From Nocardia arthritidis (lineage in GTDB: Bacteria > Actinomycetota > Actinomycetes > Mycobacteriales > Mycobacteriaceae): a stretch of 64,000 nt of DNA. Positions within the stretch are counted from its first letter, which is position 1. Every line of letters begins with the position of its first letter. The notes under the pieces were generated by a model that saw only the letters and a program-made list of their open reading frames with translations, ran no database searches and had not been told where the DNA came from. Of the stretch, positions 34,056 through 51,957 are shown piece after piece. The stretch spans positions 4,278,001-4,342,000 of the forward strand of contig NZ_CP046172.1 in the NCBI RefSeq assembly GCF_011801145.1, given 5' to 3'. Both the position numbers and the translations under genes were made by a program.

Positions 34056-34083
34056 GTCGGTGGTGACGGCCCGGAAGTTCCCC
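34056..34083 (-). promoter_or_regulatory. SigC-type promoter for secreted protein gene
   Basis: On the minus strand GGGGAACT (34083 to 34076) is followed by exactly 16 bases and CGAC (34059 to 34056). This matches the promoter of the divergent isonitrile operon and two other promoters in the window. It would give a leader of about 80 bases before the ATG at 33966. Confidence 0.7.
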
Positions 34084-34148
34084 GCGATCGGCGATAGTGT
34101 GAGCCGGATCACCTGCGGCAGCACGTTTTCGGAGTTGCCGGAAATTCC

Positions 34149-34176
34149 CGGGAACTATCGCGTTCGATCGCGCGAC
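34149..34176 (+). promoter_or_regulatory. SigC-type promoter of the isonitrile-lipopeptide operon
   Basis: CGGGAACT (34149-34156), 16 bases, then CGAC (34173-34176), an ECF-type -35/-10 pair. The ATG of the first gene is 13 bases from the C of CGAC, so transcription should start at or next to the ATG (leaderless mRNA). The spacing to the start codon is identical at the anti-sigma gene promoter at 46885. Confidence 0.78.
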
Positions 34177-34185
34177 TAGCTGATC

Positions 34186-49927: not shown

Positions 49928-51873
49928 CGCCGGGTGCGGGCCAGCTGTTCCAGCATGGCGTTGTACGCGGCCAAGTCGGAATCGCCGTACTCGTCGTCTT
50001 TGCGGTCGGTGCGCACCGCGGTGCGGCGGTCCTGCGCCACCCACTGGGTGAGCAGGGCGCCGACCACCAGCAGGATCGGGACTTCGCCGGAGACCCAGGC
50101 GATTCCGCCGCCCATCCGCTGATCGGACATCAGCGAGTACGGCCAGGACAGCTGCAGCTGACTGTAGAAGCGTTCGCCGATGACGGTGGTCATCGACATC
50201 ACCGCGACACCGAAGAAGGCGTGAAAAGGCATGACCGCGAACAGCATTCCCAGCCGTCCGAGATGCGGCAGCCGCCGCGGGCCCGGATCGATGCCGATGA
50301 TGCCCCAGTAGAAGAGATATCCGACGACGAGGAAGTGCACGTTCATCGCGACATGGCCCCAGTGGTACCGGATCAGCCCGTCGAACAGCGGCGTGAAATA
50401 CAGGCCGTAGAGCGAGATCACGAACAGCGCGAGGGCGGCGCCCGGATGGGCCAGAATCGCCGTCGGACGCGAATGCAGCAGGGACAGCACCCATTCCCGC
50501 ACACCGGGCACGCCGTCGCGCGGCGCGGGTGACACCGCGCGCAGCAGCAGGGTGACGGGTGCGCCGAGCACCAGCAGCACCGGCGCGAACATATTGAGCG
50601 TCATGTGCTGGATCATGTGCATGCTGAACATGCCGTAGCCGTACGCGCCGAGCCCGGACGAGGTGGCGAGCAGCAGGACGAGGCAACCGGTGAGCCACGA
50701 GAGGGTGCGCCACGGTGACCAGGTGTCACCGCGCCCGCGCAGGCGCAGCACACCGGCGAGGTACAGCCCGATGGCGGCGATGGCGGCGGTGCCGAGCACG
50801 ATATCGAAGCGCCACAGGGTGATCAGGCGCAGCGGATCCGGTGCGTGCGGCAGATCGAAGCCGAGGAAAACCTGCTGTGCGGTGAAGGTGCGGTCGGCGA
50901 AGGCCGGTGCGGGCCGGACGGCCATGGCCACCAGCGCCGCCTGCGCGAGCATGGAAAGCGCACCGGCGCAGGCGATCCGGTGCACGGAAGCGGTCCGGCG
51001 CACCAGGAACGAAATACCAACCGCCGCAACCAGGCTCACCAGGGCCAGCCGCCCGTAACCGGTGCCGAGCACGGCGGAGGGCGGGAGCAGCACGGCGACG
51101 AGCACGGCACCGCTCGCCGCGGCCGCCGCGAGACACAGCCGCACGATGCGCACACAGCGCCGAATCGCGGTGTCCGCGTTGGCGCCACCGCGCCGGACGT
51201 GCGCCGCGACACCGAACAATAGGCCGGGCAACACCGAGACCGCGATCTGGAAGATGATCACCGCGCCGGTGCCGTAGTCGTGATTCGGCCCCTCACCGGC
51301 ATTGCCGACAACGGCGGGCGGCAGCACCGCGAGCCCCGCCACCCCGACCAGAATCGCGGATCCGTTCCAGGACAGCGTCATCCGGGTCGCGACCGCGATC
51401 ACCGCGGCCAATATCGCGACAACGATCCAGGCGCGGGGCTTCTCGCTGGCATCCAGTAGCGCGCCGAGCGCGCCCAGCCGCAGCAGCGTGCCGGTCGACA
51501 TGCCGCCCGCCTGCGCCGCGCCGACCGGAATCAGCGCCAGCGCCGCGAGCAGCCACACCAGGCTCGCCCGCTCGGCCGTCCGCAGCCCGGCATATCCGTC
51601 GACATCGACCCGGCCCTGTTTGGTGATCGCGGTACAGCAGACCGCGTACACCAGCGAACCCAGGGTGAACGCGCCTGCCAGCGCGGCGACCACCCGCAGC
51701 AGCACATAGCCGACGGCATCGAGCGCACCGGGATAGGCGGTACCCGCCGCGTGATACGGCATGGCGCCCGCCGCGACGGCGGAGCCGATGGCCAGCGCCA
51801 GTGCCCCGATCGCGGCGGCGAGACCGACCGAACGGTGGGAAAACTCTCTGATCTGCACGTTCGTACCCGCCAT
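49924..51873 (-). CDS. CopD-CtaG fusion membrane protein (Rv0102-like)
   Basis: A 649-residue polytopic protein. The N-terminal half has CopD-like helices (LVYAVCCTAITKQGRVDVDG, GNAGEGPNHDYG). The C-terminal half is a CtaG/caa3-assembly domain with conserved FSMHMIQHMTLNMFAPVLLV, whose Met/His residues fit copper binding. M. tuberculosis has the same fusion (Rv0102) between nrp and ctpB. The start was set at the ATG at 51873; a GTG at 51918, 15 bases after the promoter CGAC, would add 15 residues and could be leaderless. It meets ctpB tail-to-tail with four bases shared. Confidence 0.85.
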   Translation of the reverse strand: MAGTNVQIREFSHRSVGLAAAIGALALAIGSAVAAGAMPYHAAGTAYPGALDAVGYVLLRVVAALAGAFTLGSLVYAVCCTAITKQGRVDVDGYAGLRTAERASLVWLLAALALIPVGAAQAGGMSTGTLLRLGALGALLDASEKPRAWIVVAILAAVIAVATRMTLSWNGSAILVGVAGLAVLPPAVVGNAGEGPNHDYGTGAVIIFQIAVSVLPGLLFGVAAHVRRGGANADTAIRRCVRIVRLCLAAAAASGAVLVAVLLPPSAVLGTGYGRLALVSLVAAVGISFLVRRTASVHRIACAGALSMLAQAALVAMAVRPAPAFADRTFTAQQVFLGFDLPHAPDPLRLITLWRFDIVLGTAAIAAIGLYLAGVLRLRGRGDTWSPWRTLSWLTGCLVLLLATSSGLGAYGYGMFSMHMIQHMTLNMFAPVLLVLGAPVTLLLRAVSPAPRDGVPGVREWVLSLLHSRPTAILAHPGAALALFVISLYGLYFTPLFDGLIRYHWGHVAMNVHFLVVGYLFYWGIIGIDPGPRRLPHLGRLGMLFAVMPFHAFFGVAVMSMTTVIGERFYSQLQLSWPYSLMSDQRMGGGIAWVSGEVPILLVVGALLTQWVAQDRRTAVRTDRKDDEYGDSDLAAYNAMLEQLARTRR

Positions 51874-51929
51874 CCTGATAACCGGAACCTCGCGTCTCGC
51901 AGCTGAATCGAACAGCACTCCGGTTACGG

Positions 51930-51957
51930 GTCGGCTGGGCGGGCGGAAAAGTTCCCG
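51930..51957 (-). promoter_or_regulatory. SigC-type promoter of CopD-CtaG gene
   Basis: On the minus strand CGGGAACT (51957 to 51950) is followed by 16 bases and CGAC (51933 to 51930), the third identical -35 box in the region. It faces the copD-ctaG gene. Confidence 0.75.

What the first reader, a model, noticed from the sequence alone, without database searches (positions are those of the whole stretch)
34056..51957. Four copies of one ECF promoter, (C/G)GGGAACT-N16-CGAC, define a local SigC-type regulon
The same -35 and -10 with exactly 16 bases between occur at 34149 (+, isonitrile operon), 34083 (-, secreted protein), 46885 (+, anti-sigma/ctpB) and 51957 (-, CopD-CtaG). All four lie in gaps and face genes of the copper locus. 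By eye I found only one other CGGGAACT in the window (minus strand, about 61826), which lacks the CGAC. Exact spacing at four sites is unlikely by chance. The M. tuberculosis SigC consensus as I recall it differs in part, so this could be a nocardial variant.
Basis: seen in the sequence. Interest (0 to 1): 0.95.

Follow-up and report, generated by a model that had tools for sequence, protein, structure and literature searches.

The report
SigC copper-starvation regulon in Nocardia
Four copies of one promoter-like sequence in a Nocardia gene cluster match the promoter published for the sigma factor SigC, whose gene sits in the same cluster, and would likely let SigC and a predicted membrane anti-sigma factor switch on genes predicted to scavenge copper.

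Summary
Confirmed and far beyond chance. All four GGGAACT-N16-CGAC sites exist. In the 10.0-Mb genome GGGAACY-N16-CGAC occurs 28 times; by a simple gene caller the only four in a gap facing a gene are these. The nearby ECF gene passes NCBI's SigC model. No nocardial variant is needed: the elements equal the C. glutamicum sigmaC consensus as quoted in one passage (GGGAACT, CGACTA) and recur in 80 named actinobacterial loci. The best-conserved target is the zinc-finger membrane gene divergent from sigC: 74 of 81 copies carry GGAAC-N17-CGAC, usually ending 9 nt before the start codon, so leaderless mRNA is likely. That protein (RsC) is probably the anti-SigC factor: in 30 of 40 chosen mycobacterial genomes it shares one open frame with SigC, a fusion already in print for the M. 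avium complex, while a 2021 paper says no anti-SigC factor is known. The regulon is a new member of a known kind. Whether RsC senses copper is open and testable. The 34083 and CtaG sites have the weakest support.

The parts
34149..34176 (+). SigC-type promoter of the isonitrile operon; CGAC ends 9 nt before the ATG at 34186 (likely leaderless)
   Evidence: same motif and distance in five relatives, G017, G008, G041, G047, G058
34056..34083 (-). SigC-type promoter facing a secreted-protein gene, 89 nt before its ATG
   Evidence: no such site in 4 of 4 close relatives with the same neighbour (L037, L203, L204, L205); GGAAC-N17-CGAC present before two of three more distant homologues in L043 and L047
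46885..46912 (+). SigC-type promoter of rsc-ctpB; CGAC ends 9 nt before the GTG at 46922
   Evidence: GGAAC-N17-CGAC before 74 of 81 rsc genes
51930..51957 (-). SigC-type promoter of the CtaG-family gene, 56 nt before its ATG
   Evidence: motif before 20 of 51 homologues, but on the opposite strand in 21 of 51
46263..46826 (-). sigC, ECF sigma factor
   Evidence: NCBIfam NF007231 SigC above cut-off; PDB 2o7g/2o8x
46922..47671 (+). rsc, predicted membrane anti-SigC factor: zinc-finger (ZAS) domain plus membrane domain
   Evidence: PF13490; C3-H29-C33-C36 in 81 of 81; RsiW match E 9e-4; relatives fused to SigC in mycobacteria
47684..49927 (+). ctpB-like copper-type P1B ATPase, 12 nt after rsc
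34186..35061 (+). ScoE-type isonitrile-forming oxygenase (TauD family)
   Evidence: NCBIfam NF049937, 405.6 bits, cut-off 400
35058..35585 (+). FcoT/ScoD-like protein
   Evidence: PF10862; ScoD model 204.6 bits, below its cut-off of 250
35582..37126 (+). acyl-CoA/acyl-ACP ligase
   Evidence: PF00501, NF004837
37132..37371 (+). acyl carrier protein
   Evidence: PF00550
37368..39134 (+). NRPS condensation-domain protein
   Evidence: PF00668
39140..41965 (+). NRPS adenylation-carrier-thioester reductase protein
   Evidence: PF00501, PF00550, PF07993
41962..43011 (+). siderophore-type substrate-binding protein
   Evidence: PF01497
43008..44051 (+). FecCD-type permease
   Evidence: PF01032
44048..44836 (+). 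ABC ATPase
   Evidence: PF00005
33289..33966 (-). predicted secreted/membrane protein of unknown family
   Evidence: no Pfam or NCBIfam family above threshold
49924..51873 (-). membrane protein with a C-terminal Caa3_CtaG domain (oxidase assembly)
   Evidence: PF09678 at 370-613; no CopD match even at E 10

Best explanation
The four sites match the published SigC consensus and are likely SigC promoters, so that the SigC gene in their midst would switch on a predicted copper-scavenging set: isonitrile metallophore synthesis with its ABC importer, the CtpB ATPase, a CtaG-type oxidase assembly protein and a secreted protein. RsC, encoded head-to-head with sigC, is inferred to hold SigC at the membrane through its zinc-finger domain. 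When the signal comes (copper lack or a failing copper oxidase; inferred), SigC would be freed. It would then transcribe rsc-ctpB along with the other targets, so the inhibitor rises with the response and shuts it off (negative feedback, inferred). sigC itself has no such site upstream. Shown by calls: motif, spacing, position, conservation, SigC family membership, linkage, and fusion of RsC relatives with SigC. Inferred: promoter activity, anti-sigma activity, the signal, leaderless start.
For: Four exact sites, 0.03 expected. The only gene-facing gap sites among 28 in the genome. SigC model above cut-off. Elements equal to the C. glutamicum sigmaC consensus quoted in the discussion of PMC5483222; one sigmaC promoter, Pcg2556 (iron-regulated membrane protein), was confirmed there in vitro. 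In 80 named loci 149 of 176 motif hits are intergenic, although about 11% of the sequence is; the reversed motif has 7 hits, none intergenic. GGAAC-N17-CGAC upstream: rsc 74 of 81, tauD 5 of 6, copDctaG 20 of 51, ctpB 17 of 49, pbp 6 of 13; operon-internal control fecCD 0 of 19; sigC own strand 1 of 65; reversed motif 0 throughout; spacing shifted by 3 gives 0-3 per gene. Unselected positions are also conserved: CGACYANT. Nocardia genomes with sigC carry the strict motif more often: 11 of 19 against 7 of 40, Fisher p 0.003; 9 of those 15 hits lie within 25 kb of sigC (coordinates). RsC and SigC share one open frame in 30 of 40 chosen mycobacterial genomes.
Against: No transcription, binding or copper data exist for this organism here. 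The own genome has no hit of the strict CGACYANT form. The secP site is absent in 4 of 4 close relatives with that neighbour. Upstream of copDctaG the motif is as frequent on the opposite strand (21 of 51) as on its own (20 of 51), so part of that signal may belong to a divergent gene. 23 of 28 genome hits are in coding DNA. Whole-genome counts of GGGAACY-N16-CGAC against the backward control are not raised in three mycobacterial genomes (16/14, 16/20, 16/14) and are raised in three others (28/6, 23/12, 33/12). The spacing control N13 gave 14 hits, 10 of them intergenic, not examined further. PMC5483222 also quotes the consensus as GGAAAC/CGACT, and no spacing was seen in the passages. A 2022 review lists M. 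tuberculosis SigC among factors without an anti-sigma, with a conformational model (PMC8999054). Fused mycobacterial frames show no facing motif in the loci read (GGGAAC form; [GT]GGAAC form in L201 and L202), so feedback is not universal.
Confidence: 0.85

Rival explanations
1. The signal read by the SigC-RsC pair is failure of the cytochrome aa3 branch or another envelope or heme defect, not copper itself; the copper genes respond because oxidase assembly needs copper.
For: In C. glutamicum sigmaC activates cydABCD and its speculated stimulus is defective electron transfer in aa3 oxidase, also seen on copper deprivation (PMC7337898 passages); a CtaG-type gene faces one of the sites.
Against: The local targets are isonitrile synthesis, a metallophore-type importer and a copper-type ATPase; in M. 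tuberculosis the nrp cluster responds to copper but not zinc limitation (PMC9600254 passages).
Confidence: 0.35
2. Another GGAAC-reading ECF sigma factor of the genome, such as a SigH type, uses these sites and SigC is a bystander.
For: The -35 GGAAC is shared with SigH promoters (PMC6338062, PMC3489674 passages).
Against: SigH-type -10 elements are GTT-like, not CGAC; sigmaC promoters are described as probably recognised by sigmaC alone; the motif tracks sigC genes.
Confidence: 0.06
3. The repeats are a repressor operator or other DNA-binding site rather than promoters.
For: Identical short sequences in gaps also fit an operator.
Against: Not palindromic; fixed distance to the rsc start codon (36 nt from the -35 in 40 of the 49 strict cases); match to the sigmaC promoter class.
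Confidence: 0.03
4. Chance or a codon-usage artefact.
For: GGGAAC...CGAC pairs are common inside GC-rich genes (23 of 28 genome hits).
Against: 0.03 expected in the window; P about 2.5e-7 for four within 18 kb; wide conservation.
Confidence: 0.01

Closest known systems
Corynebacterium glutamicum sigmaC regulon (Toyoda and Inui 2016, seen only as quoted in PMC5483222 and PMC7337898)
   Same: Same promoter elements (GGGAACT, CGACTA in one passage); respiratory and copper-deprivation setting; an iron-regulated membrane protein (cg2556) is a target there, and PepSY-TM-type membrane proteins follow the motif in other loci here (that cg2556 is of this type is my inference)
   Different: That regulon includes cytochrome bd genes; here the exact-motif targets are isonitrile metallophore, ABC importer, CtpB, CtaG, a secreted protein and rsc
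Mycobacterium tuberculosis SigC regulon (ctpB, ppe1-nrp; PMC7924339, passages seen)
   Same: Same sigma family, same two target classes (copper ATPase, isonitrile lipopeptide cluster)
   Different: There sigC is monocistronic with no identified anti-sigma; here sigC, rsc, ctpB, the isonitrile operon and a siderophore-type ABC importer lie together
ECF36 sigma factors fused to an N-terminal membrane anti-sigma (PMC8999054; MAC sigC-Rv0093c fusion, PMC7563442; passages seen)
   Same: RsC is a relative of the fused N-terminal part
   Different: Here the two are separate, divergent genes and rsc carries its own SigC-type site
ZAS anti-sigma factors such as RsiW (RsrA and RskA recalled)
   Same: Cys and H-x3-C-x2-C zinc site; profile match to RsiW 5wuq_C, E 9e-4
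   Different: RsC has a longer membrane domain (three to four helices by hydropathy) with conserved H130, E134, D177, R187, H191

Membership tests
SigC (ECF36) sigma factor | Score above the curated NCBIfam SigC equivalog cut-off | tested here: met
   NF007231 230.3 bits, cut-off 219; the tree of 44 SigC-like rows has no outside group, so it does not test membership
sigmaC promoter | -35 GGGAACT/GGAAC and -10 CGAC | tested here: met
   4 of 4 sites against the consensus quoted in PMC5483222
sigmaC promoter | -10 extended as CGACTA | tested here: inconclusive
   Only the tauD site has CGACTA; rsc CGACAA, secP CGACCT, copDctaG CGACCC
sigmaC promoter | Transcription start just downstream and SigC dependence | not testable with these tools
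   No RNA data
ZAS-type anti-sigma factor | Zinc-finger motif (Cys, H-x3-C-x2-C) at the N-terminus | tested here: met
   C3, H29, C33, C36 in 81 of 81; PF13490
ZAS-type anti-sigma factor | Binds and inhibits its sigma factor | not testable with these tools
DUF2275 anti-sigma extension of ECF36 | Pfam PF10039 match | tested here: not met
   Window RsC shows zf-HC2 but no PF10039 even at E 10; fused mycobacterial proteins match it
Isonitrile lipopeptide cluster (Sco/Nrp type) | ScoE-type isonitrile synthase | tested here: met
   NF049937 405.6 bits, cut-off 400
Isonitrile lipopeptide cluster (Sco/Nrp type) | ScoD-type glycyltransferase above cut-off | tested here: not met
   204.6 bits, cut-off 250; FcoT Pfam domain present
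CopD-CtaG fusion | CopD domain in the N-terminal half | tested here: not met
   Only Caa3_CtaG found

The most novel reading that the evidence does not exclude
RsC is the missing copper-starvation sensor of the SigC pathway in Nocardia and mycobacteria alike: a conserved set in its membrane domain (H130, E134, D177, R187, H191, with a His/Met-rich loop) binds copper on the outer face, loss of copper frees SigC, and SigC-driven leaderless rsc mRNA resets the switch. Several mycobacteria have welded sensor and sigma factor into one protein.
Probability: 0.35. Interest if true: 0.75.

Novelty: new member of a known kind. Interest (0 to 1): 0.5.

Why it matters
One SigC promoter rule appears to hold from Corynebacterium through Mycobacterium and Nocardia to Pseudonocardiaceae, so SigC targets can be picked out of gaps between genes. 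The work also points to a conserved membrane protein, itself under a SigC-type site, as the likely partner of SigC, where a 2021 paper asks how copper lack is sensed and says no anti-SigC factor is known (PMC7924339). That makes an open question testable in harmless laboratory strains.

Tried and rejected
A nocardial promoter variant: not needed, since mycobacterial loci carry the same motif or a one-base variant and a quoted C. glutamicum consensus is identical. A genome-wide regulon under the exact motif: not supported; no other gene-facing gap site of the GGGAACY form. The form GGAACY-N16-CGACHNNT has 8 genome hits against 12 for its control: 3 here, 3 inside coding (L208, L212, L213), one gap site with a gene 108 nt on without Pfam match (L207; it may lie in an uncalled short gene) and one gap site with no gene (L214). 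SigC autoregulation: not supported, 1 of 65. The CopD label: not found. M. tuberculosis itself was not recognised among the 396 genomes drawn (best identity to its SigC piece 88%), so Rv0093c was compared only through relatives and a review sentence. Nocardia plus isonitrile lipopeptide plus copper: no paper in the held library. Rodrigue 2007, Sun 2004 and Toyoda and Inui 2016 were not seen; the papers named in the report were seen as passages only.

Dropped or limited rows: the search for related loci kept the best 80 of 230 confirmed loci, found by two peptide patterns covering R7-D15 and N133-A141, so conservation there is biased by selection; C3, H29, C33, C36, H130, D177, R187 and H191 lie outside them. 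H130 and H191 are 'nearly invariant' rather than invariant in a wider set of 34, and the L044 protein lacks H130. The 40 mycobacterial genomes were picked by me from the 252 of 396 with SigC (best matches and well-assembled ones), not at random. My gene caller is a simple codon score trained on window genes. Protein searches listed the best 120 of 298, 401 and 767 hits. Clusters of downstream proteins were typed by one member each. Part of the output was cut; its questions were counted again.
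Full report
Observation. Three further [CG]GGGAACT lie in the window, none with CGAC at the spacing. The genome is one 10,014,015-base contig of a Nocardia (same-genus contigs have the same lengths as named Nocardia contigs). The exact pattern has 13 hits in it, 4 for the backward-read control; the relaxed GGGAACY form has 28, control 13. A codon-score gene caller puts 23 of 28 inside genes, one at a gene edge with nothing downstream, and four in gaps facing a gene: the four reported. Four of 28 in 17.9 kb has P about 2.5e-7, computed after the fact.

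The sigma factor. The ECF gene at 46263-46826(-) scores 230.3 bits against NCBI's SigC equivalog (cut-off 219). Its best solved relatives are two chains named sigma-C factor (M. tuberculosis by recall). In a tree of 44 SigC-like proteins it sits with Nocardia kin, and the M. tuberculosis row (two joined pieces) groups with a fused mycobacterial form at 97/91 support.

The promoter is already known elsewhere. PMC5483222 (passages seen) quotes the C. glutamicum sigmaC consensus of Toyoda and Inui as -35 GGGAACT and -10 CGACTA in its discussion and as GGAAAC/CGACT in its introduction, and confirms one such promoter (Pcg2556) by in vitro transcription; I saw no spacing there. [quoted passage not shown] tuberculosis and that almost identical predicted SigC elements precede both.

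Conservation. From 80 named loci around relatives of the divergent gene rsc, GGGAACY-N16-CGAC has 176 hits, 149 intergenic, while 167 of 1480 kb is intergenic by my caller; the reversed motif has 7 hits, none intergenic; the N19 spacing has 3, none intergenic; the N13 spacing has 14, of which 10 intergenic, not examined further. The strict motif stands 35-37 nt before the rsc start in 49 of 80 loci; most of the other 31, largely mycobacterial, carry a variant such as TGGAACA-N16-CGACTAT at the same place. With GGAAC-N17-CGAC, counts are rsc 74 of 81, tauD 5 of 6, copDctaG 20 of 51, ctpB 17 of 49, pbp 6 of 13, the operon-internal control fecCD 0 of 19, and sigC on its own strand 1 of 65. Controls: the reversed motif gives 0 throughout; N14 gives rsc 3 and ctpB 1, N20 gives ctpB 1; the opposite strand gives sigC 61 of 65 (the rsc promoter), copDctaG 21 of 51, rsc 7 of 81, ctpB 5 of 49, tauD 3 of 6, pbp 1 of 13. 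The copDctaG case is therefore weaker than the rsc case. Unselected positions are conserved too, giving CGACYANT. In six other genomes the whole-genome count against the backward control is 16/14, 16/20, 16/14, 28/6, 23/12 and 33/12, as expected for a small regulon on a coding background.

Mycobacterial loci with separate rsc genes. [GT]GGAAC-N17-CGAC faces ctpB in L191, L192, L193, L194 and L200, and stands 1.5-1.8 kb upstream of the tauD homologue of the isonitrile cluster in L191, L193, L194, L195, L196 and L200; the gene between was not identified (ppe1 by analogy). In the two 3.27-Mb genomes (L195, L196) no ctpB site was found.

Linkage with sigC. In 59 Nocardia genomes sigC is found in 19 at E 1e-30. 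The strict form GGGAACY-N16-CGACYANT occurs in 11 of these 19 and in 7 of the 40 others (Fisher p 0.003); 9 of the 15 hits in sigC-bearing genomes lie within 25 kb of sigC (coordinates). The own genome has none of this strict form, since its four sites depart at the last positions.

The anti-sigma factor. rsc (46922-47671) has a zf-HC2 domain with C3, H29, C33 and C36 in 81 of 81 relatives, and a profile of the family finds one solved structure at E up to 0.1, anti-sigma-W factor RsiW, at 9e-4. Its membrane domain has H130, E134, D177, R187 and H191 in 81 of 81; E134 was in a search pattern, and in a wider set of 34 H130 and H191 are only nearly invariant. In 40 mycobacterial genomes that I chose from 252 SigC-bearing ones of 396, 40 have an RsC; in 30 it shares one open frame with SigC, in 2 it directly precedes sigC, in 8 it lies apart from the best SigC match, though in G225, G299 and G418 a second SigC-like gene lies within 5 kb of it. 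Fused proteins are on record in M. intracellulare, M. simiae, M. parmense and others. The fusion is in print: PMC7563442 says that in MAC sigC is fused with Rv0093c, which has an anti-sigma signature, and PMC8999054 that some ECF36 members carry an N-terminal DUF2275 anti-sigma extension. [quoted passage not shown] Fusion, divergent linkage and shared promoter make RsC the likely anti-SigC factor; binding is untested.

The targets. The + strand operon from 34186 encodes a ScoE-type isonitrile synthase (405.6 bits, cut-off 400), a FcoT-like protein (below the ScoD cut-off), ligase, carrier, NRPS parts with a reductase domain, and then a siderophore-type binding protein, FecCD permease and ATPase. 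The rsc promoter also leads into ctpB, 12 nt downstream. The minus-strand targets are a Caa3_CtaG protein and a secreted protein without family match. The secreted-protein site is the weakest case: absent in 4 of 4 close relatives with that neighbour, present as GGAAC-N17-CGAC before two of three more distant homologues. CGAC ends 9 nt before the start codons of the isonitrile operon and rsc, so leaderless transcripts are likely.

Mechanism, shown and inferred. Shown: sites, spacing, positions, conservation, family membership, linkage, fusion in relatives. Inferred: that SigC transcribes the sites, that RsC restrains SigC, that the signal is copper lack or an oxidase defect, and that rsc under SigC gives negative feedback. 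In M. tuberculosis the nrp cluster is induced by copper but not zinc limitation (PMC9600254 passages) and sigC is needed for growth in copper-starved medium (stated in PMC9147137 passages). In C. glutamicum sigmaC is thought to answer to aa3-oxidase defects, as under copper deprivation (PMC7337898 passages). The present data do not decide between these signals.

Other papers seen as passages: PMC10449499, PMC2897130, PMC6338062, PMC3489674, PMC4821874, PMC10468300, PMC8103513.

Verdict. The system is a new member of a known kind. The part of most interest is the conserved RsC, itself under a SigC-type site, as likely anti-SigC factor and possible copper sensor.

Noticed in passing
mycobacterial genomes G090, G198, G304 and others; L130-L162: RsC and SigC share one open frame in 30 of 40 chosen genomes, stand in tandem in 2 (G181, G249) and apart in 8; M. 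tuberculosis SigC is nearest to a fused form in the tree (97/91), so it may have lost an N-terminal anti-sigma part.
   Followed up: partly
L066, L069, L074, L065, L094, L079 and others: Further likely SigC targets outside this genome, as clusters of proteins after the motif, one member of each typed: DUF5134 with a His/Met-rich stretch (20), PepSY-TM (16), DUF4395 (6), DsbA-like (3), Penicillinase_R/BlaI-type repressor (2).
   Followed up: partly
L034 (G052), 13863-13961: Only a sigC remnant stands beside an intact rsc-ctpB pair; another SigC gene lies 3.3 Mb away in the same genome.
   Followed up: no
L073, L084: Records labelled Bifidobacterium breve MAG carry rsc genes like those of mycobacteria; possibly mis-binned contigs.
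   Followed up: no
window 45285-46262: A D-Ala-D-Ala-ligase-like ATP-grasp gene sits between the importer genes and sigC, with no SigC-type site of its own.
   Followed up: no
G225, G214, G418, G422, L122: Some genomes hold two RsC or two SigC-like genes, suggesting parallel copies of the switch.
   Followed up: no
L041 4146-4180: Divergent, closely spaced SigC-type sites face the isonitrile operon and the importer operon, which are split there.
   Followed up: no
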